From Rhizophagus irregularis (Eukaryota; Glomeromycota; Glomeromycetes; Glomerales; Glomeraceae), in contig NC_089441.1 in NCBI RefSeq assembly GCF_026210795.1, positions 1,054,001 through 1,118,000 of the forward strand: DNA of 64,000 bases, given 5' to 3'. The notes beneath the pieces are model-generated. The model did not search any database, had not been told where the DNA came from, and worked only from the letters and a program-made list of their open reading frames with translations. Numbering within the stretch: position 1 is the first letter of the stretch; each line of letters starts with the position of its first letter. Shown piece by piece: positions 3,488-53,821 of the stretch. The translations under genes were made by a program, and so were the position numbers.

Positions 3488-4771
3488 ATATACATATATA
3501 ATATTATTATAGCAAATGACCAATATTTTAAAATTTTTTTTCGATTTCAATTTTTCATAAATAACCGAATTTTAAATTAGGAGAGAAAGAGTCTTGCAAA
3601 TTTTCTATATACTGTATGTATTTTCAGTTTTTTTTAAAATAAAAAATAAAATCGGCCACAATGATTTCTTCTGTAAATGGTATATATAAACGGAATAAGT
3701 CATAAAGTTAATAATTCCACGATTTATAATCGAGTCGACAATATAACAATATCGGAGTCACCGAGCTTCTTATTACGTATTAAAATTACCGTATCAGATA
3801 ATTTTGTAACATAAATGTTTCAATCGGCATGTAAAAGTCTAAAAGATAGTTATCAAATATTTCTGAATATAAAAGGTTAAAATAATTGAAAAAGGAGATA
3901 TGTAATCCTATTACATCAGTCGGAAAACAAATCTAATTATAATTTAGTCTAAAGGATCTTTTTTTTGGATGAACTTTCAAGTGATACGTAAGCGTAAATG
4001 AAACATCTGATACTGCATATAATGTTTGACGATAATTAATTTTATTGCCAAGAAATACCACTTGGAATATTATTTTTGTCAAATGTAGGTTGGAGTTATG
4101 AAAAACCTTAAATTTTTCCTTGTACTAGATTCAGGCTAACAAATTTTATTTATAAACTGGTTTATTAACCGGAATTAATCAGCTTAGGATTTCAACACCG
4201 GATAATCGCAGTTCTACGATCTGACCTATTAAAATTATAGTACACATACTGCCAATTCTTTGACAGATTATTCTTTCGCATTAACCGTTTTTTACACGCA
4301 TGAGTATGTAATTTAATTCTTTCTATCTGCTCTAAATTGTGTAGATTTCGTCTAATAAAATTTAATTAATTAACACTCATTAGTTCAGAGCGAAGTGAAG
4401 GACTATAGAACTCTAAGCAAGGCACAAAATATCCCGTTCCGTCCGTTCATTGTATGAGTTGATAGATAATTATTGTTCCTGACATTGCACATCTCCGCTC
4501 TAGCATAATGAAAAAAAATATCTCGACACGTAAAAAAAAAATGTCACTTTCAACATTATTGCTGTAATTACCGTTCCATAGTATACAATGTATGATATTT
4601 TTTGGGCATGTTTTAACTTGTAAGCAAACTAAATAAAAAGGAAAAAAGATTCTAAACATAGATAGTGACAAACAACTAAAATAAAAGATTTTTTACAAAG
4701 TTAAATTAATTAATTAAATAAATATTAAATATACATATTTTTAATTACGAAAATAATTTATTTATTTATCT
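3488..4771. other. AT-rich intergenic region
   Basis: This lies between the dead UGT copy and the convergent BTB-TLDc gene. I see no ORF with a recognisable motif. The one ORF of note (minus, 4447-4671) is Phe/Ile-rich and lacks family features. It presumably contains the 3' untranslated region of the minus-strand gene ending at 4772. Confidence 0.5.
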
Positions 4772-6253
4772 TCATTTTCTAATTACTTGAAATATTTCAA
4801 AATCTTCTATAGTAAAATTTCCTGAAATAATATCTATATTAGGATAGTGAGTTCCACTAAGATAAGTCCACTTATTGGAATTAAGGCAAACTAAATTACC
4901 CATACTAGGTCCTCGATCATTATAACAAGAAACAGCGCAATCTTTAATATTGACATAACCTAATTTTGCAGTAGAAGTATTTTTCATATCTGTAAAATTA
5001 AATAGAAAACTATCCGCAGTACTTTTCCAACCACAATTTCCGTTCCAATCAAGTGGGTTATAACCTCCAATTAATTGTGTTGAACCTTGAATTTTTGCTA
5101 CCCAAATAGTAGCTCCTTTATTGTCACAATTTCTATGAAATGATGTAGCATTAAATCCATTCTGACCTGAACGATATAATAATTTAAATTCATAAGGAAT
5201 CATTTTTTTATCATAATTTGAAGAATCCTTTTTATCAATCCATGAAGCAAAAAGTGGAATATATTCTGAATCAATCAATCTTGAATCAAGTTTAAAACTT
5301 AAACTTGACTTTCTTAATGGTGTTATATTATTAGTCTTAGGTTTCATATTAGGAACTATGTGAAATTCCAAAAGATCATTAATTAAATCCTGTGGTAAAA
5401 TATCTTTATAACAATAAACTTTATAAAAGAAATCTTCAGGTTTGATATTATAGAATCTAATAAGAGAGATAAATCTACTTAACGAACCCTTAATTTTTGT
5501 AATATCTTCTTTATTCCATTTTTTAGGGTCATTATTCATACTTAATTGTGCAAAACACCATTTCAATAAACTCTCCCAAATTTCAATCTCATCCGCATTT
5601 AAATCATCACTTTTTAACAATAATTCCAATAAAGAAGCTTTTAAATTAATAAATTCATCAGATTCTAATAAAATCTTTGGTTCTTTACAAATTTTTTCAA
5701 GATAAAATTCCCATAAATCTGTAAACGTTTCATGTTGATAAACGGTCTCAAGAATACCAGTTGGATTTTGATGTAAAAATTCAGTTTGATGTTCAATTAA
5801 ATATTCTTGAATATGAGAAATTAATGATTGAATATTAAGTTCATCCACTGCCACTAAAAGTTTTAGCACATCCGGTCCCTGTAAATTCTCCAATTCAATA
5901 TTTCCACAATAAATAAACCTAACATTTGAAAAATCATTATTAATTTATTATTTTTTTTTGTTTTTAAGAAAATTAGACGTATAACGATTTATACAATACC
6001 TAAGGATTATATTAAGAAAGTTGGGGGAAATGTTTGGTTTTCTCAAAATAAATTTTCCATCTTTTTTTTCAGCCCATTCATTAGAAAACGCCGTACGAAA
6101 ATATATTGACCTGATGCATAAAATATTTGAATGAGCATGAATCTCTTTAATATTTGATTCTTCTCCAGCATAAATAATAACATCATATCCTATTTCTGTT
6201 TCAAAAAGCTTTTCATAATCATTAGATAACTCGGCCCAAAATTTCGAAGACAT
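4772..6253 (-). CDS. BTB-BACK-TLDc domain protein
   Basis: Two exons on the minus strand: 6253-6000 and 5918-4772, giving 466 residues. The 81-bp intron has a GTATTG donor at 5999 and a TTAG acceptor; joining restores the frame across an Arg codon. I chose the ATG at 6253 (MSSKFWAEL), because upstream codons add a hydrophobic stretch alien to the family. Domains in order: BTB/POZ at about residues 20-120 (YDVIIYAG, then IHAHSNIL and RSIYFRTAF), BACK helices at about 125-245 (LESDEF, DEIEIWESLLKWC), and TLDc at about 290-466 (LLYRSGQNGF, then the GGYNPLDW core). In this family BTB normally dimerises or binds Cullin-3, and TLDc is linked to stress response or V-ATPase binding. The family is greatly expanded in Rhizophagus, and specific targets are unknown. 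The gene looks intact. Confidence 0.9.
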
Positions 6254-35909: not shown

Positions 35910-37040
35910 TTATGTATTGATCAAATTACTAATTATATTATTACCTATCCTATGTCTATTAGAACTACCTACACTAAATACGTCATTTTTAATTTTATTT
36001 TCTAAATCTATTTTTATTATTTTTTTAATTTTCTTCCTGTTTTTTGAGTTTTCTAGTTTTGTATTATCTGTTTCCTTATCTTCCGAATCATCCTCAGCGT
36101 CCCTTTTTTTCCTTTTTAGATCTTTAAATAAACCTTTTTGTTTTTCTATTTCTGTCACCTCGTTACATCTTTCTTTCCATATATGTTCTTGTATCTTCAT
36201 CAAATATAGGTCAAATATGTCTCTCAAAATTTTTTTAAAATTTTTATTTTTACATACGTTCATCCATTTTTCATTAATAATTCCTCTTGTGATTTCTCTG
36301 ATCATATTATGCAAAGGCATAATCATAGACCGACCAGTTGATATATCCACTAGGTTTTCTTTGAATTTCTTAATTTCATTCGAGTCTTCATCTGTCATTG
36401 CATGAACACAAATTTCCTCAATACTATCGCTAAAAAGCTTGTATTCAGTAAACACACCATTATTTTCACAAGACCATATGTGTTCCCATGTTTCAACTTC
36501 TATTATGCATCTAGGGCATTTCGTACTCTCAATACCCCAAACTTTCCTTTCATATAAAATCTCATACGTTGGTAATATTTTCAAAAAATTTTTAACTCTA
36601 AATGATCTTCTTGATGCATCTAACCTATTCGTGACATTTCTGCCTGTAGATATTTCGTTATTAATTAATTTGAACGTTTCTTTCCAATCGATCATTACAT
36701 TGGCTCCATTACATTCCACAAAACAATCTTTCACATAATCCATCAAAATTAAATCGATCCTATTTATGTTGTTACTAATTTCCTTGAAACATTTTCTATA
36801 TGCACCTTCTATCGCATTATAGTTCCATCTTAACGCATATTCATCTACCGCTATGTTTGAATATTTTAATACCACCTCTTTAATTGAATCTTTACATCTA
36901 ATTAGTTCTTGCTTTAACGCGGGTAATTTCACACTCACGCTCTTCATTATTGTTACATCATTATCTTTTTCCTCATCAATTAATAATCTAATATTTTTTA
37001 ATTCCAAAACTATATTGATACAATTTAGGAATATATAACA
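35910..37040 (-). pseudogene. LINE ORF2, C-terminal part (severed)
   Basis: About 375 residues in the same frame as 48742-53821 once the Gypsy element and one copy of its 4-bp duplication are ignored. It finishes the RNase H region and adds a Cys/His knuckle CPRCIIEVETWEHIWSC (CX2CX8HX3C), which Tad/I-type ORF2 proteins commonly carry after the RNase H. It ends with a Lys-rich tail (KRKKRDAEDD, KNRKKIKKIIKI). Separated from its start by 11.7 kb, it cannot be made as part of ORF2. The first ATG in this piece is not a natural start. Confidence 0.85.
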
Positions 37041-37043
37041 TGG

Positions 37044-38138
37044 TGAGATCCCCCAATTCCCTCTGTCATCAATTTACAGAGTTGCCACATCGAACGGGCA
37101 TTCCCATGGTCGAACGAACGAATAATCGAACGAACGAACAATTAAACGAACAAGCAAATAATCAACGTCATAATTAACAAACAACATAATCAACGAACAA
37201 CGTACAACAACATTCTTGGTTCACGACATAAATAGCGTTAGTAATATAAAACATTAAACGATATAAAATAAATTTTACTTCTCTAAATTTTCCCCAAATT
37301 ATATCCACTTTTACCTTTAATTACAAACTTCGATAGCTCTCGCTACGAATTATTACTTTTCAAAAATGTATATTTAATTCATCTTAAATTTCCATTTTAT
37401 TCAATTAAAATTAATTAAGCGAACATTAATTAAAGTTTAGGGCGAACCTATTACCTTTAATTAATATTATACTTCATTAACAAATAATTAAATTTAACTT
37501 ATATTTTTATTGAGTTCTGTGGATGAGAACTATGGAATTACTTTGAATTCCGTTCTCTATATATACAATTTTTATGCTACTTTCTATTCTATCTATATAC
37601 TATCTTTTATGTTCTTTACATATTATCTTTGAACTATCTTTCTAATATACTATCTATATTTTAAATATGCTATCTTTTAATATGCTATCTTTTAATATGC
37701 TATCTTTTTATATATGTTCTTTTTAATATATTATCTTTTACGTTCCATCTTTATACTATCTTTTTATATTATCTTTTACATTATTTTGTGTTCTTTAATC
37801 TTTCTGACATTATTTTATATGTTCTTTTAATTCGCTTTATGTGTTTTGCTTATAATCTATCTTTTGTGGCTTATAATTATTCTTTCTTATCGTTCCTATT
37901 GTTAAAGATTGCTAAGCCGCAATTGATCGACTCTATTTATCCTATTGGTTTCTTGTCAATCATTCAATAAATATTACATCATGTAGATCATTACTCTTCC
38001 TAAATGTTTATCCTTTTCGGCTAATTATTTATCCATCCACGCCAATTCATAATTAATTTGTTCGCTCTTAATACTTGGTAATTACATTTGGTGGTTGAAT
38101 TTTATCATCTTTTCGTGCTTGATATTCGACCGTTTACA
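37044..38138 (-). repeat. 3' LTR of the Gypsy element (1095 bp)
   Basis: Begins tgagatcccccaattccc and ends cgtttaca on the plus strand. It is nearly identical to 47464-48741 except for a 183-bp duplication present only there and four substitutions that I can see. It contains runs of tatgctatctttta words. Confidence 0.95.
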
Positions 38139-38214: not shown

Positions 38215-39440
38215 CTAATCGAATCGAACTCGGGTCTTATCGAATACCTCTTTTCCTTTAATTACTATTTTTGGTGTAAATCTCCCTCGATCATAAAATT
38301 TCTTTAACCATTCTCCGTTTTGTGGTGTCTTTAGTATTCTTCCATCCAATTCTTTGAGTTTGTATGCTCCATTTCCAAATTCTTTGTGAATTAAATATGG
38401 TCCTTTCCATTTGTTCTGTAATTTTCCAGACCATTGTTTCTCTCTCCATGCTTCATATAATAATACTTTTTCTCTTATTTCAAATTTAGGTTTTCTAATT
38501 CCTCTTTTGTCATGTTGTTGTTTTTGTCTCTCTTGAGCTTCTTCCACATTTTCTTTCATTTTTCTTCTTATTACCGGTAGCTCCTCAATTAGTATTTTTA
38601 CTCTATCAGCTAATGTTATCTTGTTTTCGTCTTTATCTAATGGTAATTTCGCTTCTCTCCCGTATGTTGCGTAAAAAGGTTTAATCTTTGTTGATGATTG
38701 CTTCTTTGTTCTATATGCAAATAATACGGATGGTATATGTTTATCCCAATTTTCTTCTCCTAATTTGGCTAATCCTTCGCATAAAGTTTTATTGAATCTT
38801 TTGACCAAACCATTTGTTTGTGGCCTATATGGTGTACTTAATCTGTGATTTATCCCACATCTTTCTACTAATTCCTCCATCATTTTATTGTTAAAGTGAG
38901 TCCCTCTATCGCTAATTATTTTCTTTGGACATCCATGTCTACAAATTATGTCTCTCCAAATAAATTCTACTACTCTTTTGCTGTAGCTTCTTTTAGTGGT
39001 GCGGCCTCGGGCCATTTTGTAAAATAATCCATTGCTACTACAATGTACTTATTTCCCTTTTCTGTCTCTTTTAATGGTCCAACTATATCTATTCCAATCA
39101 TCTCAAATGGTTCATTTACCTTTATCGGCATTAATTCGTTCTTTCCTCTTGGTTTTCCTCTCATTTGACAATTCCAGCACGTTCTTACATATTCTTCTAC
39201 ATCTTCTTTCATATTTTTCCACCAATAATTTTCTCTTATTCTATCTAATGTCGCTTCTATCCCAAAATGCCCTGATAATTCATTATCATGCATCATGTAC
39301 ATCAATCCCTCGTATTCATAATCCCTGATTACTCTAAATTTGTTTTGTCCTTTTATTCTATATAAAATTCCCTCTTTTAATTCATACTTATTTTCTTCTT
39401 TGATATTGTCTATTATTCTTTTGTAATTATTTTCTTCCAT
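38215..39440 (-). pseudogene. Integrase of the Gypsy element (frameshifted, catalytic Glu lost)
   Basis: Two overlapping frames. 39440-38970 carries the HHCC zinc-binding domain (HDNELSGHFG, then CWNCQMRG) and the first catalytic Asp (IGIDIVGPL). 39015-38215 carries the second (KKIISDRGTHF) and a C-terminal basic domain with KWKGPYLIHK. The frames meet at a run of four A (38976-38979) where one more A would keep the family frame. The DDE glutamate, expected in NGxxERFN, is Lys here (NGLVKRFN; codon AAA at 38800-38802, one transition from GAA). The enzyme would be inactive even if the frameshift were bypassed. A short leader with coiled-coil character precedes it (39441-39669). Confidence 0.88.
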
Positions 39441-39669
39441 AATATTTCTTTGTATATTTCCGTTCTACCTATGGCTATCTCTATTTTTATTATCTCCTCC
39501 TGTATTTCTTTAATTGATGATTCTTCCCTTTCGTTCCAATCGTCAATTTTATGTTACCTAACTTCCTGTTTTTATCCTTTAATTTGATAATTTCTTCTTG
39601 AATATTTCTTAATGCTTCAATCAATGCTTCTATTTCTGAATCCGTTGTTTTTATTATTTGTTCCATATT
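39441..39669 (-). other. Kinase-integrase linker segment
   Basis: Directly after the stop of the RT-kinase ORF, an ATG at 39666 opens a helix-rich Glu/Lys/Ile stretch (SEIEALIEALRNIQEEIIKL), then the coding signal moves to another frame (IKEIQEEIIKIEIAIG). It is probably the original N-terminus of the integrase ORF with a frameshift near 39545, or a region once joined to the kinase by recoding. Confidence 0.45.
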
Positions 39670-41751
39670 TTAATTCTGTACTTTTCTCCATTTTTCCACC
39701 TCTTTAAATACTTTTCTCCAACTACTATTGTCATTTTTAACTTTCACTCGACTGTATCTTTTGGTATCTTTGTACACACTCTGATTTTCTTCAAACATCT
39801 TAACCATGTCCAAATATTCATTCTTCTTTAATGTTGGGTATGATGATTTTTCCATTTTCTCTGTTTCTCTTCCAATATAATTTTTCCAACATACATCACC
39901 ATCTTTTTCTAAGAATATCACTATTGATTTATCTATCGTTTCTTTCAATCTGAATATTTCTTTTTCCATCTCATGATTTCCATGTGGAGTAATTAATCCC
40001 CTGTCGAAACTTTTCGTCTTCTGATAATAATATTCACAATATGGTGATTTGTCTAAAATTATTATATCTGTATCTTCATCATATTCTAACATTCTTCTGT
40101 TTATTTGTTCCACTACTTCTTTTCTAAATTTCCATTCCGTTTCCATCTTTGGTTCGTGAAATTCATCTTTATCTTTTCTCCTTCTTTTATAAGTGTTAAA
40201 TCTTACTTTTAATCCTTGCTTTTCCCATTCTTCAATTAAATTTTGTACTATACTTGTTTTCCCTAATCCATCTACTCCATCAATTATTACTATTTCTGGT
40301 TGGTCTTCTACTATTTTTAATAACCTACTTAATGCGTCAGCATTCGTATTTTCTTTTCCTGATCTATGTATTACTTCAAAATTATATTGCTGTAATTCCA
40401 TTACCCATCTTGCTCTTTTTCCTTTCGGTATCTTTGCATTCATTAATCCTTTCAATGCACTGTGATCTGTTACTACTTTAAATTTTCTATCGATCAAATA
40501 TTTATGAAAATGTTGAATTCCCCAAACTATTCCCAAACATTCCAATTCTGTTATCGGATAATTTTCTTCTGCTGGTAATAAACTTCTACTTGCATATGCT
40601 ATCACTACTTCTTTTCCCTTTTCATCTTTTTGACTTAATACTGCACCCAATCCTTTTCCTGATGCATCTGTTATTAATAAAAATTCTTTCTTCCAATCTG
40701 GATGTCGTAATATCGGATATTGTATCAACTTTTCTTTCAATTTTTCAAATGCTTCTTGTTGTTCTTTTCCCCAAATAAAAGGTATTCCCTTCTTTCTCAA
40801 ATCACTTATTGGTCTTGCTATCTTTGAAAAATTCTTCACAAATTTTCTGTAATATGAACAAAGTCCTAAAAATGATCTTACTTCTTTCACTGTTGTTGGT
40901 GCCTTCATTTCTTTTATCTTTTCTATCTTTTTATCGTCTGGCCTTAATCCATCATTTCCTACTATATGTCCTAAAAATTCTATGTTTCTTTCCAAAAATC
41001 TACATTTCTTTAATTTTATTATCAAATTATTCTCCCGTAACTTCTTTAATACTTTTTCCACATGTTCCATATGATCTTTTAAATTTTCCGAATATATCAT
41101 AATATCATCAATATATACTACCACAAAATCGTTTATGTATTCTTCTAATATTTCATCCATTAATCTTTGAAATGTTGCTGGTGCATTCGTTAAACCGAAC
41201 GGCATTACATTATATTCAAACAATCCTTTCGAACATACAAATGCTGTTTTTTCTTTGTCTTCTTCTTTCATCTCTACTTGATTAAATCCTGCTGCTAAAT
41301 CTATACTTGAAAACCATTTTGCTTTTCTATATTTGTCTAATAATTCATCCATTCTTGGTAAAGGAAAACTATCCATTATAGTTATCTTGTTTAACTTTCT
41401 ATAATCAATACAGAATCTATATTTTCCCGTTTTCTTTCCTGCTAACGTAACCGGTGAACTCCATGGACTTTTTGATTTCCTTATCCTTCCTTGTTTTAAC
41501 AATTTATCCACTTCTTCGCTTATAAATTTTGCCTTTTCATCTGTTTCTTTGTATCTTCTTTGCTTTATTGGTTCTACCCCCTCTTTTATCTTTATTTCAT
41601 GTTGTGCTGCTTTTGTTCTTCCTTCTATTTCCCCGTCATATTCCAAAATATCTTGGTATTCTAATAGTAATTTTACCATATTTTCCCAAATTGGTTCTTC
41701 TACTTTCCCTATACTTAGTTTTTGCATAAATTTTTCACTTGGTTCGAGCAT
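39670..41751 (-). CDS. Reverse transcriptase-RNase H fused to a thymidylate-kinase-like domain
   Basis: 693 residues. RT at about 80-260: DYRKLNKIT, LPRMDELL, FSSIDLAAGFNQ, MPFGLTNAPATFQ, and the YIDD box at 213-216. RNase H at about 355-478: first Asp in LLITDASGKGLGAVL, TELECLGIVW, VTDHSAL, NADALSR. Where such proteins normally end, the frame runs on: IIDGVDGLGKTS at 489-500 is a P-loop of the thymidylate-kinase form, DIIILDKSPYCEYY at 562-575 resembles the DR(Y/S) motif, and residues 608-655 resemble the beta strand, lid and Glu/Phe/Tyr helix of that family. The extra domain is about 205 residues, the usual size of a dTMP kinase. RT motifs look intact. The upstream protease is in a different frame. 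Inference: local dNTP supply for reverse transcription. Confidence 0.92.
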   Translation of the reverse strand: MLEPSEKFMQKLSIGKVEEPIWENMVKLLLEYQDILEYDGEIEGRTKAAQHEIKIKEGVEPIKQRRYKETDEKAKFISEEVDKLLKQGRIRKSKSPWSSPVTLAGKKTGKYRFCIDYRKLNKITIMDSFPLPRMDELLDKYRKAKWFSSIDLAAGFNQVEMKEEDKEKTAFVCSKGLFEYNVMPFGLTNAPATFQRLMDEILEEYINDFVVVYIDDIMIYSENLKDHMEHVEKVLKKLRENNLIIKLKKCRFLERNIEFLGHIVGNDGLRPDDKKIEKIKEMKAPTTVKEVRSFLGLCSYYRKFVKNFSKIARPISDLRKKGIPFIWGKEQQEAFEKLKEKLIQYPILRHPDWKKEFLLITDASGKGLGAVLSQKDEKGKEVVIAYASRSLLPAEENYPITELECLGIVWGIQHFHKYLIDRKFKVVTDHSALKGLMNAKIPKGKRARWVMELQQYNFEVIHRSGKENTNADALSRLLKIVEDQPEIVIIDGVDGLGKTSIVQNLIEEWEKQGLKVRFNTYKRRRKDKDEFHEPKMETEWKFRKEVVEQINRRMLEYDEDTDIIILDKSPYCEYYYQKTKSFDRGLITPHGNHEMEKEIFRLKETIDKSIVIFLEKDGDVCWKNYIGRETEKMEKSSYPTLKKNEYLDMVKMFEENQSVYKDTKRYSRVKVKNDNSSWRKVFKEVEKWRKVQN

Positions 41752-41786: not shown

Positions 41787-42290
41787 CTATTTAAAATTCT
41801 GGTGCATTTTGAATACCTCTCCTTCATCGTTACTTTCATATTCTTCATCGTCCTCGCTCTCCTCACTCTCATATGCTGCTTCTCTTTCATATCCTACCGG
41901 AATCGTTATTATTTCTCCCTGTTCTTCTATTCTTAAGGTATGGTCTTCGAAATTTATTTTTGCATTATACAACTTCCATATGTCATTTCCCAAAATTAGA
42001 TCCTCTTCTTCTGAATCGATTACTTCAACTTCTTTCAATATCTCTAATTCATCTTTGTATCTTAAAGTTATATTTGCCTTTCCTAACGCTGCTATCTTTT
42101 GCCCATTTGCTATTGTACATCTAAATTTACTTTTTCCAAACATAGGTATATTCAATCTTCTTCTTAATTTATCCGTTATCACGCTTACTGCTGCTCCAGT
42201 ATCTATTATTACATTCACCAATTGATCTTCAACTTCTAATTCTGTTCTCATTGCTGTAGTTCTTTTTTCCTCATTTTTCATAGTTCCCAC
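41787..42290 (-). CDS. Retropepsin-type aspartic protease of the Gypsy element
   Basis: About 167 residues with the active-site triplet in VIIDTGAAVSVITDKL and, near residue 97, DLILGNDIW (the second conserved hydrophobic-Gly pattern). It then ends in an acidic tail. It lies in the same frame as Gag, separated by a single TGA (42302-42300) followed by CTA, so it may be made by stop-codon readthrough as a Gag-protease fusion. Gly-start or GTG initiation is not needed. Its end and the RT start (41751) are in different frames. Confidence 0.85.
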   Translation of the reverse strand: MGTMKNEEKRTTAMRTELEVEDQLVNVIIDTGAAVSVITDKLRRRLNIPMFGKSKFRCTIANGQKIAALGKANITLRYKDELEILKEVEVIDSEEEDLILGNDIWKLYNAKINFEDHTLRIEEQGEIITIPVGYEREAAYESEESEDDEEYESNDEGEVFKMHQNFK

Positions 42291-42299
42291 CGAGTGTAG

Positions 42300-45200
42300 T
42301 CAATTTTTCTCGTTTATACTTCTTGGTCTATATGTTCCTTCTCTTAATTGTTTATGATACTTAGGATTATCCTTTACCATTTGTCCAAATGTTATATTTG
42401 CTCTACAATTTTTCACGTCTCCCACAATATCATAAGGTGGTATTCCGTCAGTTAATCTTGGTATATACTCTCTGGGTTTCGTTGGTCCTCCTGCTTCTCT
42501 CCATTTTTTTAGTCCCTCTGTTGGGTCGTAATAAGCTTGTCTTTTATTGCTCCATTTCATTCCTTTTGGTCTTATTGGTCTATCCCCATTTTGTTCAGTT
42601 CGTTCGGGTATATAATTTGGTGTCATTGTACCACTTGGTATTTCTCTATCGTCCATTCTATTTCCTGCTTCTCTTAATTCTTCTTGTAAATTTCCTTCTT
42701 CATTATTATTTTTATATCCCACTATTGGATTCGTTCTTCTCGTTTGTCTTCTTTCTTTTACTGCGTTATCTTTTGCATATAATTCATTATGATAATTTAA
42801 TTCTCCGTCTTCGTAATCATCGTAATAACCTTGTGTATAATATACTTCGTTATATTGTGGTTCCTCGTACCCATATTCATCATAATAGCAATCTTCTTGA
42901 TCATCATATTCGTCTATCATATTTACTCTCGCATTCCCTCCTTCGGGACAGTTATTCTTATAATGCCCCACTCTACTACATCCGAAACATGTTGGTACCC
43001 TATTCTGATTTGATTGGTAACTATTCCTATTACCATTATTTAATCTCCTTCCTGTATTTGGTCGATACCTATTCCTATTATCGCTATTTAATCTTCTCTC
43101 CATATTCGCTATTAGTCTTTCTAATTTACTAATTTTTGCCTTTTCTTCAAACGCTTTAACTAATTCGTCCTCATAATTTTCGTTCAATGGTTTTGCGAAC
43201 ATATTTTGTCTATTATCATCTTTTCCGGTATCTATCCTTGTACTAGTTGGTTGTCCTAATGCTTTCCTAATAAATTCGTCCTTTGCACCTTCTTCTCTTA
43301 CTGCTATTTCTATTGCCCCATTTAAGTTTGCTGGGTTTTGTCTTCTAACTTGATACCCTATTGTTGGTTCTAGTCCTTCAATATAAAAATCTACTTGATA
43401 TTCATCTGCTAAGGCATGTCCTCTAGTTGCTATTCTTAATATTTGTCTAAATCTTCTTGTATATTCCTCAACACTTTCATTCACTTCTTGTCGAGTTTTT
43501 CTTAATTCTAGCATTTTCTTTCTTCTAACATCCTCTCTAGTAAATCTCCTTTTTATTCTATGTTTTAAATCATTATCATTATCTGCATCTACCCAATTCA
43601 CTAAGTGACCTGCATTTAATTCTTTCGTTTCATTGTACCATTGTGCTGCTGCTCCTCTTAAATGTGCTGCTGCGTATGCCGCTTGTCTTATACCATTAGC
43701 TCCTGCTGTTTTTCCGACCGCTGTAAATGCTACCTCAAATTGTCTAACCCAATCACTAACATCTTCATCTTCTCTCCCATAAAAGAGTGGTATACTAATT
43801 GTTCCTCCTGCTTCATTCCCTGCATTTTCGATCCTTTCTATCAAACTTCCTCCTGCTCCTACTGCTGCGTTCAAAGTATTAGCTGGATAACCTAAAGCAT
43901 TCTCTATCAATCTTTTTATTTGGTTCTCAGTTGCCATATTTAATATATTCTCTTGAAATAAATCTCGTAAATTGTAATCAGATAATTCACTTTCGTTGTC
44001 AGAATTTTTAATATTTAATGAACTATTCGTATCTGAGTTTTGACTTAAGTCGATATCTCCTCTATTTATAACATTTTCAATTTCATCTTCAAATTCTTCT
44101 TCATTAAAATTTTCAATATTTTCATCCCATACTTCATCCGGACTTAATATTTCTCCAGTCTTTTCTGAATCATCTGTATTATCTTCTTCTGATTCTTCAT
44201 TATCACTCTTTTCACCACTTTCTTTACTATCTATTATTCCTGCTTGTTCTTTCAACAACTTATCTAACTTTTTCTTTAATTCTTTTTCCGACTCATTTTT
44301 ATTTTCTTGAAAGATTTCAATGAATTCTTTATCTAAAATTTCTCCATCTGTATATCCCATACTAGTTAATCTTAACAATTCTTCTTCAGTTATTATTGTT
44401 CCAATATCTTCAAAAATCTTCTGTAATCTTTTTACCCGATCATTAATTTCATCGACATCTTCTTCCTCACAATCTTTGCATATGGTTTTTCCTAATCTAA
44501 ACATATCGTTCATCCATCTTATTTCGCATCTTTCGCACCAGGTTGTGTTCTCATTTAACCATTTGTGCACCTCTTTTCTTAACTCTCTATCTTCTAATTC
44601 TATTATTCCCATATACCTTTCTATGAATTCTTCTGTTACCATTATTCGATTATTAACTCTGAACTTCTTCATTCTTCGAATTTCCGATACATCTATTTCG
44701 TATCCTAATTTTTCTAAGTTGTTTCTTAGTTCTATTAGTTCATCTTGTTCGTTTTTCTGCGCTTCTTTAATACATTCCCCGCATTCGCTATCCGCTTCTT
44801 CCATTTCGAACCTTCTATTACCACATTTTTCACATATTATTGTTTCTTTTTCTAACCATTCTTTTATCCTCAATTCTTTTTCCCTTTCATCCATTTCCTC
44901 TATCTCTTGAATTTTATCCATAAATATTCTTGTTACCAATATATCCATTTCTATCATCAACTTTATTCCTATCTTCCAAATGTACCTCAGTTGATCTTCA
45001 TCCATAGCATTTGACCTTCTTCTCAATTCACTAAATTTCCATGATTTATCTCCTATTATTATTTCTAATTCTTCCTCAGAACTATTTTCCAATTCGTAAC
45101 TTGCTGGACTATCTTCACTTTCTGAATCTTCTGGTTCTTTTGTAAAACCCCTAGTATCTATAAATATTCTTATTATCTTCTGTACCATATTCTTATGATG

Positions 45201-45866
45201 TTCATGAACATTATCTATTTCTACATTCTCATGTTTTATTCCTCGTATTAATTCTTTCACTTTTTCTTCACTTTCTGCTATCTTTTCTTCTTCATACAAT
45301 AATTCCTTGAACTTTCCTATTGCTTCTACTTCTGCTCTTACAGCCCTAATTTCTCCTAATGCAACCCTATACCATTGCCAAAATTTTTCAAATCTTCTTT
45401 CAACATCCCAATCTTCTAAAATATATTTGTGTTCTATTAATTCGGGATTTCCAATTAATCTATCAAATACTTCGTTCTCTAGATTTCTTTCAATACAATC
45501 TCTTACGATTACTAATATAATTGTTCGTAATCCTTTCTCTTTTATTTTCGGCTGTATTCTATATCTTATTGATTCTGTTATTCTATCCATTATATCCCTA
45601 CATTTTCCTTTATGTATTGTATCTTCTCTTTCCGAATTATTCATACTTAATAAATCTAATACTCCCTTAATCGTCACATCATTATATATTATTATTGCAT
45701 CTTCAAACTTAAATAATGCGTCCCAAAATTTCTTGAATACTATTGGTTCATTTACTATTGGATAACATAATTCACAATTTAAACATTCGTCCAATTCTTC
45801 CGTTCCTACTTCGTGTTCCTCTTTATGTGTTCTATATTCACTTTCCCATTGATGATACCATTCCAT
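42300..45866 (-). CDS. Gag polyprotein with duplicated zinc modules
   Basis: 1188 residues, long for a Ty3/Gypsy Gag. The first 560 residues are charged and helical and hold CLNCELC (28-34) and two cysteine modules: CEKC-X13-CGEC near 346 and CERC-X15-CKDC near 443. Each is preceded by a KEWLEKET/HKWLNENT-like helix and followed by similar sequence, so the region looks duplicated. An acidic linker (Ser/Asp/Glu) follows. The capsid region begins near 688 (IPLFYGREDEDVSDWVRQFE ... AAQWYN ... ESVEEYTRRF). A CCHC knuckle CFGCSRVGHYKNNC lies near 960. The C-terminus is Tyr/Asp/Glu-rich. The start is the first ATG after the leader. Confidence 0.9.
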   Translation of the reverse strand: MEWYHQWESEYRTHKEEHEVGTEELDECLNCELCYPIVNEPIVFKKFWDALFKFEDAIIIYNDVTIKGVLDLLSMNNSEREDTIHKGKCRDIMDRITESIRYRIQPKIKEKGLRTIILVIVRDCIERNLENEVFDRLIGNPELIEHKYILEDWDVERRFEKFWQWYRVALGEIRAVRAEVEAIGKFKELLYEEEKIAESEEKVKELIRGIKHENVEIDNVHEHHKNMVQKIIRIFIDTRGFTKEPEDSESEDSPASYELENSSEEELEIIIGDKSWKFSELRRRSNAMDEDQLRYIWKIGIKLMIEMDILVTRIFMDKIQEIEEMDEREKELRIKEWLEKETIICEKCGNRRFEMEEADSECGECIKEAQKNEQDELIELRNNLEKLGYEIDVSEIRRMKKFRVNNRIMVTEEFIERYMGIIELEDRELRKEVHKWLNENTTWCERCEIRWMNDMFRLGKTICKDCEEEDVDEINDRVKRLQKIFEDIGTIITEEELLRLTSMGYTDGEILDKEFIEIFQENKNESEKELKKKLDKLLKEQAGIIDSKESGEKSDNEESEEDNTDDSEKTGEILSPDEVWDENIENFNEEEFEDEIENVINRGDIDLSQNSDTNSSLNIKNSDNESELSDYNLRDLFQENILNMATENQIKRLIENALGYPANTLNAAVGAGGSLIERIENAGNEAGGTISIPLFYGREDEDVSDWVRQFEVAFTAVGKTAGANGIRQAAYAAAHLRGAAAQWYNETKELNAGHLVNWVDADNDNDLKHRIKRRFTREDVRRKKMLELRKTRQEVNESVEEYTRRFRQILRIATRGHALADEYQVDFYIEGLEPTIGYQVRRQNPANLNGAIEIAVREEGAKDEFIRKALGQPTSTRIDTGKDDNRQNMFAKPLNENYEDELVKAFEEKAKISKLERLIANMERRLNSDNRNRYRPNTGRRLNNGNRNSYQSNQNRVPTCFGCSRVGHYKNNCPEGGNARVNMIDEYDDQEDCYYDEYGYEEPQYNEVYYTQGYYDDYEDGELNYHNELYAKDNAVKERRQTRRTNPIVGYKNNNEEGNLQEELREAGNRMDDREIPSGTMTPNYIPERTEQNGDRPIRPKGMKWSNKRQAYYDPTEGLKKWREAGGPTKPREYIPRLTDGIPPYDIVGDVKNCRANITFGQMVKDNPKYHKQLREGTYRPRSINEKN

Positions 45867-47463: not shown

Positions 47464-48741
47464 TGAGATCCCCCAATTCCCTCTGTCATCAATTTACAGA
47501 GTTGCCACATCGAACGGGCATTCCCATGGTCGAACGAACGAATAATCGAACGAATGAACAATTAAACGAACAAGTAAATAATCAACGTCATAATTAACAA
47601 ACAACATAATCAACGAACAACGTACAACAACATTCTTGGTTCACGACATAAATAGCGTTAGTAATATAAAACATTAAACGATATAAAATAAATTTTACTT
47701 CTCTAAATTTTCCCCAAATTATATCCACTTTTACCTTTAATTACAAACTTCGATAGCTCTCGCTACGAATTATTACTTTTCAAAAATGTATATTTAATTC
47801 ATCTTAAATTTCCATTTTATTCAATTAAAATTAATTAAGCGAACATTAATTAAAGTTTAGGGCGAACCTATTACCTTTAATTAATATTATACTTCATTAA
47901 CAAATAATTAAATTTAACTTATATTTTTATTGAGTTCTGTGGATGAGAACTATGGAATTACTTTGAATTCCGTTCTCTATATATACAATTTTTATGCTAC
48001 TTTCTATTCTATCTATATACTATCTTTTATGTTCTTTACATATTATCTTTGAACTATCTTTCTAATATACTATCTATATTTTAAATATGCTATCTTTTAA
48101 TATGCTATCTTTTAATATGCTATCTTTTTATATATGTTCTTTTTAATATATTATCTTTTACGTTCCATCTTTATACTATCTTTTTATATTATCTTTTACA
48201 TTATTTTGTGTTCTTTAATCTTTCTGACATTATTTTATATGTTCTTTTAATTCGCTTTATGTGTTTTGCTTATAATCTATCTTTTGTGGCTTATAATTAT
48301 TCTTTCTTATCATTCCTATTGTTAAAGATTGCTAAGCCGCAATTGATCGACTCTATTTATCCTATTGGTTCCTTGTCAATCATTCAATAAATATTACATC
48401 ATGTAGATCATTACTCTTCCTAAATGTTTATCCTTTTCGGCTAATTATTTATCCATCCACGCCAATTCATAATTAATTTGTTCGCTCTTAATACTTGGTA
48501 ATTGTTAAAGATTGCTAAGCCGCAATTGATCGACTCTATTTATCCTATTGGTTCCTTGTCAATCATTCAATAAATATTACATTATGTAGATCATTACTCT
48601 TCCTAAATGTTTATCCTTTTCGGCTAATTATTTATCCATCCACGCCAATTCATAATTAATTTGTTCGCTCTTAATACTTGGTAATTACATTTGGTGGTTG
48701 AATTTTATCATCTTTTCGTGCTTGATATTCGACCGTTTACA
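47464..48741 (-). repeat. 5' LTR of the Gypsy element (1278 bp, with internal duplication)
   Basis: Same ends as the other LTR. It is 183 bp longer because a segment beginning gttaaagattgctaagccgc occurs twice in tandem (about 48321-48503 and 48504-48686). As the 5' LTR of a minus-strand element it should contain the promoter. Confidence 0.95.
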
Positions 48742-51700
48742 ACGGATCATCTAATTCTCTTCTATTGCTACCAATCTTACTATAGTCTATAAACCATTTT
48801 AATATTTTTTCGTCTGTTCTTAAATCTACGATCACATTATCTGGTATTATCATCAAAGCTATTATAATTCCAATAGCGTAAATTTTCCTCTCATTTCTAG
48901 TATTACAAACTTTACCTTCTATACTAAACTTTTCTTCTTTACTATTTTTTGCAAAAATCTCTATTCCAAAAAAACCGTCTAGATTTAAATCAGGGCCTTT
49001 TTGTATAATAGCTCCTATCTGTAAAAAAATTTCTTTGTCTGTAAAATCAAAAAAATCCCTTTCTATAAAATTATTTAAATTTTCATAAATTCCCGTTTCT
49101 ACAATAACGCTATTTAACCAGAACTTAGCATTTGCTCGTAATATATTTTTATCTCTGTCAATAATCATGTCGTTGATTATAAGTTTCTCTTTATTACTAT
49201 TTGACATATTTTGAACGCTCGCGTTTCTTTTATCAATATATTCCAAACTCCTATAAGGTTTGATATATTTCACGTCGACGTTATCTTTTCCCCATCTTCC
49301 TGGTATCGTCGTAGCTAAGTCTTTTTCTATATATATATAACATTCTAATTTCCAATCTTTTTTCTTTCTAATATTGTAATTACATCCTTTACAATTTATC
49401 AAAAAAGGAGAATTTATCACATCATTGTTGGCTTGTAATTGATCGTATTCTATCATATGTTTACCTATTTCGTCATAAAATCTATGACGTGACTTCTTTG
49501 ATCTTATACTATATATATTATTGGACGACTTTGGATCTTTCCATGTAATAATTTCTTTATTAGTTTCTTTTCTACTTTTATCAGAATGGTCTTCACTATT
49601 TCTTACTTTCTTGGTATCGTCTAAATCCATTCTTTTGATTAACATTTCGTTACATAATTCCCTTTCTAAAATACCATTAATTGTTATACGGTCCCTTACT
49701 ATTTTAAACCATTTTGGTTCTATTCTCAACGCTAACCCGTTTTCTTTTAAAAAGTGTGTCCATTTCATCATTTTGTCTGTGTAAGGTTCAATTGGTTGTT
49801 CAACGAACATAATGCCACATTTTTTAATTCTATTTTTGTAAAATCGGAATTCCTCTTCTAAAACTTCTTCGATCAAGATGTATCCTCCTCTAATCCTATG
49901 ATTTCGGAAAAGATCATTATAATTTTCATGATCACATAAATGAAATTTCTTGGAGTCTAAAACTATTAATGCATCTCCGACAAATCTTTTTGTTGAAAAT
50001 TTAACTTGTGATACTTTTTCTGCAAAACATAAGGGCGTCCACGCTTCTTGTTGCAACTGCTCCATTTGTATTTTAAATATTGATCTAACTATCTCATTGC
50101 CATTTGCCATATACATTATGTTTTTACTTAAACTTTCAAATTGTAAACTATAAATATCTTTAACTCCATATATGTCCTTATCGTATAATACACAGTTCGG
50201 CAACGAACTTGGCATTTTACATTTATGTTTTATCAAAGTGTTTATTGGCGCCATTAATTGTTTAGCTTCATTCTCTGTAATAACTACACCCTGTAATTGA
50301 TATTCTAATGCCGGAATCATATTAATGTTCCATAGTTTACATACTTGTTTATCTGTTATTATTTTCCTATTCATTATTTTAACAAAACCTTCTATCATAT
50401 CTTTCATTTTTTTAATGTGAACTGCTCTATTATTATTATACGTAAAGAAAATTCCCAGAAATCTATTACCATTTTTTGAATTAATTTTTTCTATTTTTTG
50501 CCCTTCTATTATCATATCTCTCTTTTCTACATTATTTATTCTAATTATTTCGTATTTTTTAGGGTTTGCTTTAATATCATTTAATCTATAGAAGCTGTGA
50601 CATATTTCTAACATATCCATCATTTGGTCATGTGATCTACTAATAAGTGTCGTGTCATCCATGAACGCTATCGCATTAATTATCATACTATGGATTGTCA
50701 CCTTATCTTTTGTAATATTTTCTTTGAACTCTGACTTAATTTCATAACCCGCTTGTTCTCTCATATCATCTAATTTACATAACAAGGGGTCGTAAAAAAT
50801 TCTCCATAATATCGGCGACCATACCTCACCTTGGTCGATTCCGTCTTCCACTTTATATTTTTCCGTTAAATCATTGTTAACTATAACTCTATTGAATCTA
50901 TTATAAGATATATCTAAAACTAAATTTATCCATTGTTCCAGTAATTTTATACGCTCCATCCCTTTTCTCAAACTTCTCGAGCTAACTGAGTCGTATGCTT
51001 TACTTATATCCATTAATACTATCCACGCTTCTTTTTTGTTAATATTGGCATCTTCGATTATCGCTTGCAAAATTTTTATTGGTTCGAATGTACTTTCATA
51101 TTTTAATGCCGCAAAATTTTTTCCCTTTAAAACAGTATACTTTGTCAAAATATCATTCAGACGGTTCGTAAGTATTTTGATCACGATTTTCCTTGCTGTC
51201 TCGATAAACGTTATTGGACGCGTTAGTTTTAAATCTCTATTCCACTCCATTGTTTTTTTGATCGGATAAATTATTCCGTCTTTCCATTTTTTTGGCCATG
51301 TTCCTTCTTTTATTACCAGATTTATAATTTCTATTAAAGCTTCCTTTGTATTATCACCACTTTTCTTCCAAAAATCGTAAGGAATACCACTTACCCCCGC
51401 TGCTTTATCATATTTGAGATTATTTAACGTTAGATTGCATTCTGTCATTGTTACTTCATCACATAAATGATCGTATATGTGTTCATCAATAGTATCGAGT
51501 TTGTTGTAATATTGATTCCAATTTCTATCAAACTCTTCTTCATCGAAATTTCTTGCGCATGTCCAATTTTTGTAATGTTCTATGACTTCATCTTTTATTT
51601 CTTCGTGATTTGTAATCATTCTGACCCTATCTTCACTTATTTTCTGACAACTATCTATTCTGATTTGACCTCTTCTTTTATCCATTATTCGAATGATCAT

Positions 51701-53821
51701 TTCTTTTAAGTCTGTTGTCATTAATTGTTCACGTTTTTCTATATTTTTTTCTATTTCTAGGCTGTGTTCGTATTGTTGTACATTTTCCATATCACACAAC
51801 AATCTGTTTTTTTCTATTTCTATCTTATCTTTGGTTCTGTTTATCGATATACTGTCTTCAAGGTTATCATGCAAATTTTTAAATTGATTTTCCGTTTCCG
51901 TTGTCATCATCGAGTTACAAATGTCGTTAAATCTATGTACTAGTATCTTGTAATTGGTAATTACATTCCTTTCTTTTGCACCAAAATTTTCCATTACATC
52001 CAAGTTTCGTCTTGTTTCTTCGTTAAATTTATTTCTTTCCGTTACCAGTCTATCCCATTTTTTCCACAGTTTTTCTATTTCATTTATAATTTTTAATTTG
52101 GTCTTAACTTTATCGCAATCAGACATGTCTTTGACGCTTGTATTGTATTCTTTCTGCGTGTTTTTATTATTTTTTTTAATATTGTTCTTCTTTTCTTGGT
52201 TCACTTCTGTTATTTCTTTGGTGATTACGTATTTAAGCGTGTTCCATTTTTTGTCTATTTCGGTTGTTATTCCATCTTTATCTCCTTCGCTTTCGTCCAT
52301 GTTCGTTTGTCTTTCTATAATACTTTTTTCTACACGTTCCGCTATTTCTTCCCATTCTTTCCCTGAAAATTTATGTCTAAAATATCCTGTGTCTTTTCCT
52401 TTATTATTATTATAGTTTGTTGTCTCATTTTCTATTTTAATAGTAATCGTTAACGCTTTGTGGTCTGTTGATAATTTGTTTTCTACATTTAATACTTCGT
52501 GTTCATCGATTCTCTGTAACATTTCGCTATTCACAAAAATATAATCAATTCTTGTACTTATGGTTCCGTTTGTCCATGTATCTATCAGGTCGTTATTGTT
52601 GAAATAAGTGTGTATATCTACCATATTATGACTATCTATCAATTCTAGAAAATTATTTTTATCTTTCTTCCCTATATTTTGTCTTCGTTCGTTGAAGTCT
52701 CCCATTACTATAATGTCTAGATTTTCATTTTTCCCATTTTCTATCCATTTATCTACTGTCGATATAATTTCCTTTTTTTTGTCTTTATTGTTACCTACCA
52801 TATATATATTTATAATTCTGATCAATTTTTTATTTCCTTTGAGTATAATATCTATTGATTGTGTGTATCCCTCTATTGTTTTATAGTTAATCGATCGTAC
52901 TTCTGTCCAATATTTTTGTATTAAAATTTGACTACCTTTACTTTTTTCCTCTTCCGCGCTGTTGTTCCTAATTTTCATTGTTTCCCAATCTCTATATATG
53001 TATTTTCCTTTTGATTTCTTGATTTTTGTTTCGTTGATTCCTGCTATGTCCCAATTTTCTTTGTTGATAAAACTTTTTAATCTCTCTTGTTTGTTATCTG
53101 ATCCTTTATCATCGTTTAAACCCCTTATATTTATACAACCTATTTTTATCTTATTGTTTATTTTGTTATTATTTAAATTTTTATTTGTTTTTTTGTTTTT
53201 TATCTTCTTATTTTCCTCTATATACTTGTCTACAGTATCTTCATCGCCCCACGTCTCCTCCTCATATATACTAATTCGTCGTGAAGTTGATTCAATATCT
53301 ATGTCCATAATGGACTCCGTTTCCTCTTCTTCTATCATTGTCGTGAATTGTGCGTTGTTATTTGTATCCAGTGTCGTATTGTCTATAATCATTTTCTCTT
53401 CCGTTATTATCTTCTCTTCTGTTATCGTATCTTGCTTTTCCATTAAAGTCGTGTCGTTGGGTGTAACTATATATTTGTTAAGTTTGGTAGTTTCTGCGAT
53501 TTCTGGAGTTGTTCTCATTTGGTCTTCTGTCGTAATTTCTTCCATAGTTTCTTCCGCTGTCTCTAAATTGTTGGTTGTTTTTGTTGTATCGATTGAATCT
53601 TTTATATGTAGTTCATCTTGAATCGTAACTTTGTTCATAGTTGTTGTTATTTCCGCTATATCTTCGTCTGTAATCATTGGGTCGTCTTGTCTGTTGTTGA
53701 TATATTGTTTGGTGTTTGTTGTTGTATTGTTGACGTCCTCTTTGTTCCCCTTTTCCTGTATATTCTCTTGCATCTTGTGAGTTGTTGTATCTTCCGTGTT
53801 GGTGATATGCTCTTCTTCCAT
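48742..53821 (-). pseudogene. LINE ORF2, N-terminal part: endonuclease, RT, partial RNase H
   Basis: About 1693 residues before the Gypsy insertion. Residues 1-210 are Thr/Glu/Asn-rich linker. The endonuclease is at about 225-460 with all apurinic-type catalytic residues seen: INIRG (N231), NETK (E264), VMGDFN (373-377), RIDYIFV and STDHKAL (H454). A coiled, charged linker follows. RT is at about 800-1150: LTRPITFIETARKI, LMDISKAYDSV, GEVWSPILW, and the box FMDDTTLI near 1049. RNase H begins near 1605 (NLDGFFGIEIF) and is cut at the insertion, where only four LTR-derived bases lead to a stop. This would still make endonuclease and RT but not RNase H or the knuckle. Confidence 0.9.

What the first reader, a model, noticed from the sequence alone, without database searches (positions are those of the whole stretch)
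39670..41751. Gypsy Pol carries a thymidylate-kinase-like domain after RNase H
Seen: after the NADALSR end of RNase H the same ORF continues about 205 residues with GVDGLGKTS and an ILDKSPYCEYY motif, plus a lid-like Arg/Glu/Tyr segment. The coding part is about 39670-40299. Family knowledge: this P-loop form and the DR(Y/S)-like motif are typical of dTMP kinases and related dNMP kinases. Inference: the element brought a nucleotide kinase to raise dTTP/dNTP for reverse transcription, as retroviral dUTPases do. I do not know of a described Gypsy lineage with this layout.
Basis: partly seen in the sequence, partly recalled or inferred. Interest (0 to 1): 0.88.

Follow-up and report, generated by a model that had tools for sequence, protein, structure and literature searches.

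The report
Fungal retrotransposon carrying a nucleotide kinase
Many copy-and-paste DNA elements in the genomes of mycorrhizal fungi carry, between their RNase H and their integrase, an extra conserved domain that is predicted to be a nucleotide kinase and would likely supply DNA building blocks for the element's own copying.

Summary
Residues 485-693 of the RT-RNase H ORF (window 39673-40299, minus strand) are a P-loop domain. Its predicted structure (pLDDT 93) matches thymidylate and deoxynucleoside kinases, and a thymidylate-kinase profile covers its length (E 2e-14). It is no private accident: the own genome (Rhizophagus irregularis-like) gives 151 matches in several diverged element lineages; in 19 of 20 fetched loci it lies between RNase H and integrase. 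Proteins of R. clarus, R. diaphanus and Glomus cerebriforme have it too. Active-site residues are kept (P-loop Lys in 76 of 77 clusters), and selection is purifying, about as on integrase (median dN/dS 0.065). Kinase-bearing RT sequences fall in one branch. New here: one lineage (L031-L033) carries the window family's kinase in another lineage's backbone; the AU test rejects common descent of kinase and backbone, so the kinase moves as a cassette. The host has its own, different thymidylate kinase gene. Substrate (dTMP or another deoxynucleotide or deoxynucleoside) and role (dNTP supply for reverse transcription) are inferred. Kinase-free Gypsy relatives thrive in this genome too. My searches found retroelement dUTPases but no retroelement thymidylate kinase.

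The parts
47464..48741 (-). 5' LTR (TG...CA), carrying an extra 183-bp tandem duplication absent from the 3' LTR
42300..45866 (-). gag ORF, 1188 aa: long N-terminal region without confident Pfam match, then Retrotrans_gag/Ty3_capsid; a CCHC knuckle only at E 0.86
41787..42290 (-). aspartic protease ORF, 167 aa
39670..41751 (-). RT - RNase H - kinase-like ORF, 693 aa
40960..41436 (-). reverse transcriptase (RVT_1, residues 106-264)
   Evidence: E 2.8e-45
40384..40698 (-). RNase H (RT_RNaseH, residues 352-456)
   Evidence: E 3.1e-37
39673..40299 (-). thymidylate-kinase-like domain (KIN), residues 485-693
40255..40278 (-). P-loop GVDGLGKT (KIN residues 8-15)
   Evidence: K14 in 76 of 77 clusters, D10 in 72 of 75
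40021..40053 (-). DKSPYCEYYYQ motif (KIN residues 83-93), in the place of the DR(Y/H) motif of thymidylate kinases
   Evidence: D83 in 77 of 80, K84 in 79 of 80
39856..39870 (-). lid-like R-E-x-x-K (KIN residues 144-148)
   Evidence: R144 in 82 of 82, E145 in 80 of 82, K148 in 79 of 82
39490..39666 (-). 58-aa ORF, Glu/Lys-rich, right after the kinase stop codon
   Evidence: no other test made
38970..39440 (-). H2C2 zinc domain and first part of the integrase
38215..39015 (-). second part of the integrase, in another frame in this copy (29 of the first 46 own-genome integrase matches, this copy included, lie in one 411-417-aa frame without a stop)
37044..38138 (-). 3' LTR (TG...CA), 1095 bp; 4 mismatches in 1040 aligned bases to the 5' LTR

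Best explanation
A group of related Ty3/Gypsy LTR retrotransposons in arbuscular mycorrhizal fungi carries, between RNase H and integrase, a conserved P-loop domain that is predicted to be an active thymidylate-kinase-like enzyme and would likely raise dTTP (or other dNTPs) for the element's own reverse transcription. Shown: the domain, its place, its many copies in several lineages, retention of nucleotide-kinase motifs, purifying selection, and a kinase of one element lineage sitting in the backbone of another. Inferred: the domain is made as the C-terminus of the RT-RNase H product (or, in another lineage, the N-terminus of the integrase ORF) and so would be packed with the reverse transcriptase in the particle; there it would turn dTMP into dTDP, and host NDP kinase would finish dTTP. 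This would pay where the host's own dNTP supply is low, such as non-dividing nuclei of spores and hyphae. The exchange of cassettes is likely due to template switching between co-packaged RNAs.
Against: No activity, expression or particle data. The window protein is under Pfam's cut-off (20.3 against 27 bits) and far under NCBIfam's equivalog cut-offs. Fold scores do not separate thymidylate kinase from deoxynucleoside kinase. The usual Arg of the DR motif (recalled) is Lys here. hhalign with the deeper alignment A2 covers only the P-loop. Kinase-free relatives are common in the same genome: 29 of 150 RNase H matches have no listed kinase match within 1.5 kb and at least 20 have no room for one, so the kinase is not needed for Gypsy spread. 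The host has its own thymidylate kinase gene.
Confidence: 0.62

Rival explanations
1. The domain is a deoxynucleoside kinase (salvage enzyme of the dCK/dGK/dNK kind) rather than a dTMP kinase; it would still feed dNTPs to the reverse transcriptase, but from nucleosides.
For: Giardia deoxyadenosine kinase is the best Foldseek hit; human dCK and dGK tie with thymidylate kinase in Z; DKSPYxEYFY resembles the ERS-x-Y-S motif of these kinases (recalled).
Against: Sequence profiles favour thymidylate kinase: Pfam dNK matched 1 of 13 members against 11 of 13 for Thymidylate_kin; PHROG best hits are thymidylate kinases; the P-loop has the Asp of GxDGxGK and the second motif an Asp, not Glu (the meaning of these letters is recalled).
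Confidence: 0.2
2. The P-loop domain binds nucleotide but works as a helper ATPase, polynucleotide kinase or structural part of the RT-integrase complex, not in nucleotide metabolism.
For: Several other P-loop families score close to Thymidylate_kin (AAA_14 also 11 of 13 members, KTI12 7 of 13; FtsY 38 of 54); the domain lies next to integrase in 20 of 20 fetched loci.
Against: Those weak matches cover mostly the first part with the P-loop, while PHROG_761 spans the whole domain; conserved residues include the acceptor-side segment 39-69 and the lid 144-148; the fold neighbours are nucleotide and nucleoside kinases.
Confidence: 0.13
3. The domain is a passenger captured from a host gene, without use to the element.
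For: Retroelements do capture host genes (PMC5408684, section 14 read); kinase-free relatives spread well.
Against: Purifying selection in old and young comparisons, conserved active site, presence in several lineages and in Glomus cerebriforme, replacement of one kinase by another with its motifs kept rather than loss; the host gene is different.
Confidence: 0.03

Closest known systems
dUTPase-bearing fungal and rotifer Ty3/Gypsy elements (PMC2864245, passages; PMC5408684, passages and section 14)
   Same: An acquired enzyme of thymidine-nucleotide metabolism encoded inside pol of a Gypsy element; position varies among families
   Different: dUTPase, not a kinase; PMC2864245 places it at either end of Pol or between PR and RT, PMC5408684 between PR and RT in its own elements; here a P-loop kinase between RNase H and integrase
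Thymidylate kinases (Pfam PF02223, PHROG_761; E. coli Tmk, phage Tmk)
   Same: Fold, P-loop GxDGxGKT, acceptor motif with Asp, lid Arg
   Different: Identity about 9-17% to the solved structures listed; DK in place of DR; fused to RT-RNase H or to integrase
Deoxynucleoside kinases (dCK, dGK, mycoplasma and Giardia dAK)
   Same: Fold, equal structural scores
   Different: P-loop and second motif closer to thymidylate kinase; Pfam dNK matched 1 of 13 members
Orchid Ty3/Gypsy elements with an AlkB m6A demethylase (PMC9289625, abstract seen)
   Same: Rare fixation of an extra enzyme domain in a Gypsy lineage
   Different: Extra ORF with RNA demethylase; different function

Membership tests
Ty3/Gypsy LTR retrotransposon | Order gag, PR, RT, RNase H, integrase between LTRs | tested here: met
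   LTRs TG...CA, 4 mismatches in 1040
Ty3/Gypsy LTR retrotransposon | Short target-site duplication | tested here: inconclusive
   no exact duplication; CCGT against CCAT; removing 4 bases (or 1) lets the interrupted LINE frame read on, which agrees with a 4-base duplication with one later change
Thymidylate kinase | Full-length match to a thymidylate kinase profile | tested here: met
   PHROG_761 E 2e-14 over residues 3-204; 13 of 13 members
Thymidylate kinase | Score over the curated family cut-off | tested here: not met
   Window protein 20.3 bits against 27 in Pfam, far under NCBIfam cut-offs; of 7 relatives scanned P0027, P0045 and P0080 pass Pfam's cut-off, four do not, and P0091 has no Pfam match at E<=0.001
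Thymidylate kinase | Fold | tested here: met
Thymidylate kinase | P-loop with Asp, Gly, Lys | tested here: met
   D10 72 of 75, G13 70 of 76, K14 76 of 77 clusters
Thymidylate kinase | DR(Y/H/F) motif (recalled) | tested here: not met
   Lys at position 84 in 79 of 80 clusters; conservative change at the aligned place
Thymidylate kinase | dTMP phosphorylation | not testable with these tools
   needs an enzyme assay
Deoxynucleoside kinase | Match to the dNK profile (Pfam PF01712) | tested here: inconclusive
   1 of 13 members at E 0.0068; fold scores tied

The most novel reading that the evidence does not exclude
Retrotransposons of mycorrhizal fungi carry their own dTTP-making enzyme covalently joined to the reverse transcriptase, a self-feeding replication machine that works in non-dividing nuclei, and they trade kinase versions among lineages as cassettes, perhaps to escape host control of nucleotide supply.
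Probability: 0.35. Interest if true: 0.88.

Novelty: new variant of a known kind. Interest (0 to 1): 0.72.

Why it matters
Retroviruses and some Gypsy elements are known to bring a dUTPase, but I found no paper on a retroelement with a thymidylate or other nucleotide kinase. If the enzyme is active, it would show that dNTP supply limits retrotransposition in these multinucleate, largely non-dividing fungi, and it makes that question directly testable with one purified domain. The cassette exchange shows an accessory enzyme moving between retroelement lineages inside one genome.

Tried and rejected
Passenger or single-copy accident: rejected by copy number, selection and other species. Recent copy of the host thymidylate kinase: the host gene at C13:3242213-3242981 looks intron-split with motifs FEGCDKAGKST and DRYAYSGVSYS, unlike the element's GVDGLGKTS and DKSPYCEYYYQ; no tree with other thymidylate kinases was made, so the donor stays open. 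Phage or bacterial donor: tblastn of the window domain against phages found nothing at E<=0.01; P0091 only E 1 or worse, best rows Prevotella Lak phages; viral contigs and bacterial/archaeal genome contigs gave no confirmed relative. PDB by sequence gave nothing significant for one protein (best rows designed pentatricopeptide repeats) and only FtsY P-loops at E 0.009 or worse for the profile. hhalign of the deeper alignment A2 to E. coli Tmk was weaker than with A1, probably because of its gappy flanks. tRNA and Rfam scans of the window: none. Whether the kinase-free R. irregularis family P0170 (RNase H 69%; outside the kinase branch) is the same as the kinase-free loci could not be checked (search machine busy).

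Limits of counts: lists hold only the best ~150 scored candidates, and some matches are pieces of one broken copy. In one search, 12 of 150 kinase matches had neither RNase H upstream nor integrase downstream in the lists, yet two of these, L035 and L046, do have neighbours. Two kinase-free pairs have wide gaps (1750 and 2759 bases) that might hold an unlisted kinase, and 7 more have no listed integrase. L002-L030 are the best kinase matches, which favours intact kinases. dS is near saturation between lineages. L034 was left out of alignments A1 and A2 (stop codon); L043 was in the first list and was left out of A1 and A2 too. 81 of 126 rows of the tree have unknown kinase status because their protein ends soon after RNase H; 28 of them lie inside the kinase branch. 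That tree was the quick kind, with SH-aLRT support alone. The swap is clean at the 5' side; on the 3' side the spacer between kinase and integrase (about 4401-4900 of L032) resembles neither partner well, and the first part of the integrase is also more diverged between L032 and L043 (86%, dS 0.51) than RT is, so more than one exchange is possible.

Full report
What is there. The window lies in a 146.7-Mb assembly in 32 contigs; the kinase region matches proteins of Rhizophagus irregularis DAOM 197198 at up to 98%. On the minus strand lies a Ty3/Gypsy element with LTRs at 47464-48741 and 37044-38138 (TG...CA; 4 mismatches in 1040 aligned bases), so the insertion looks young. Its ORFs are gag (42300-45866), protease (41787-42290), RT-RNase H-kinase (39670-41751), a 58-aa ORF (39490-39666) and a zinc-finger integrase split over two frames in this copy (38970-39440 and 38215-39015). 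Of the first 46 integrase matches in the own genome (92-100% identical, this copy included), 29 lie in one 411-417-aa frame without a stop. The element sits inside a LINE-type ORF (endonuclease plus RT) whose frame reads on when the flanks are joined with 4 bases (or 1) taken out.

Copies and layout. The own genome gives 151 matches (150 entered), some of them pieces of one broken copy; the first 56 rows are 93-100% identical, most others fall at 83-88, 75-79 and 54-67%. Of 20 loci fetched from the diverged groups, 20 have the zinc-integrase pieces downstream of the kinase and 19 have RNase H upstream (L046 does not). The kinase is joined in frame to RNase H without a stop in L002, L010, L031, L032, L037 and L041, with stops between kinase and integrase; in L045 and L047 it is joined in frame to the integrase, with stops between RNase H and kinase (600-aa frames; P0032, 47 members). 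Of 150 RNase H matches, 121 have a listed kinase match within 1.5 kb downstream and 29 do not; the RNase H to integrase gap is 648-871 bases in 20 of 22 kinase-free pairs and at least 1105 in all 88 kinase-bearing pairs. So kinase-free Gypsy families live in the same genome. Protein databases give 41 relatives of Pol length, 39 with RT, RNase H or integrase (zinc domain included) Pfam domains, and 99 relatives of domain length. All sources that bear an organism name are Rhizophagus irregularis, R. clarus, R. diaphanus or Glomus cerebriforme; many others are unnamed JGI, ENA or similar sequences.

Function kept. In 192 kinase sequences (91 clusters under 90% identity, not all covering each site) the P-loop Lys14 is kept in 76 of 77, Asp10 in 72 of 75, Asp83 in 77 of 80, Lys84 in 79 of 80, Arg59 in 75 of 78, Arg144 in 82 of 82 and Glu145 in 80 of 82. 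Between lineages kinase dN/dS is 0.09-0.25 in the seven pairs without the swap, 95% bounds 0.04-0.41; RT lies at 0.08-0.21 in the same pairs. Within the window family (30 copies, chosen as best kinase matches) the median over 420 of 435 pairs is 0.065, against 0.031 for RT, 0.023 for RNase H and 0.064 for the integrase core; 0 of 30 copies have an internal stop in the kinase. For contrast, the extra ORFs of bdelloid elements showed no significant departure from neutrality (PMC5408684, section 14).

One branch and a cassette exchange. In an RT-RNase H tree of 126 rows all 40 rows with a known kinase fall in one branch of 68 rows (SH-aLRT 97) and the five rows with a long tail but no kinase fall outside; 28 rows inside have unknown status, so losses cannot be counted. 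Within that branch the kinase is exchanged: L031-L033 group with L043 by RT and RNase H (SH-aLRT 99; dS 0.03 and 0.02 for L032-L043) but the kinases of L032 and L043 differ at dS 1.18 and 61% identity. Along the alignment, L032-L043 identity is 95-100% from PR to RNase H (one stretch 89%), 61-84% from 3801 to 4400 of L032 (kinase at 3815-4441), poorly alignable in the spacer to about 4900, and 86-100% from 5001 in the integrase. L032-window identity rises from 51-82% to 82-94% in just the stretch 3801-4400 and falls again to about 60% after it. The kinase tree puts L031-L033 with the window family; holding them with L043 is rejected (delta lnL 112.5, AU p 3.5e-48; the group was chosen after seeing the data, but the RT tree is independent).

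Mechanism. Most likely the domain is made with RT-RNase H or with integrase, enters the particle, and turns dTMP into dTDP near the reverse transcriptase; host NDP kinase would complete dTTP. That this helps in nuclei outside S phase is inference from the assumed role of viral dUTPases in non-dividing cells (PMC2864245, passage) and from recalled cell-cycle control of thymidylate kinase. The host has its own thymidylate kinase gene with different motifs, so the element does not fill a host gap in gene content. Rivals are a deoxynucleoside kinase, which would serve the same end, and a non-metabolic P-loop function.

Known or new. Searches for thymidylate kinase with retrotransposon and Rhizophagus (0 papers), with LTR retrotransposon (0), with retroelement (1, on polyphosphate; passages), nucleotide kinase with retrotransposon and integrase (1, Toxoplasma; listing only), and thymidylate kinase with transposable element and fungi (3; one seen in passages, on polyphosphate kinases, the other two by listing) found no description; none of the 20 listed papers (of 744) held the words thymidylate kinase. 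Two papers on R. irregularis transposable elements do not contain 'thymidylate' in their main text. Only open-licence papers are searched. I therefore file it as a new variant of a known kind: a Ty3/Gypsy element with an acquired enzyme of nucleotide metabolism.

Noticed in passing
window 48742-53821 and 35910-37043 (-): A LINE-type ORF (endonuclease plus reverse transcriptase) interrupted by this Gypsy element; joined flanks read on for about 2069 codons when 4 bases (or 1) are removed.
   Followed up: partly
window 48318-48683: A 183-bp tandem duplication in the 5' LTR that the 3' LTR lacks, although the LTRs are otherwise nearly identical.
   Followed up: no
window 42300-45866 (-): A long gag ORF (1188 aa); the first ~720 residues have no confident Pfam match but hold repeated CxxC pairs.
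   Followed up: no
window 39490-39666 (-): A 58-aa Glu/Lys-rich ORF begins three bases after the kinase stop codon; P0017 has a similar charged tail after its kinase.
   Followed up: no
L051 (G000 C24:3288271-3288729 and flanks): A second thymidylate-kinase-like host stretch (VLEGCEDTNTT, VDRYVYYATAESAAAG) lies just downstream of an HMG-box-like ORF (HMG box recalled, no profile run).
   Followed up: no
G000 C28:1224005-1224616 (-): Best own-genome match to PHROG_761 (66 bits, 336-aa frame) is not among the 150 listed kinase matches; possibly a further diverged lineage. Its letters could not be fetched.
   Followed up: partly
window 4772-5893 (-): A gene with BACK and TLDc domains.
   Followed up: no
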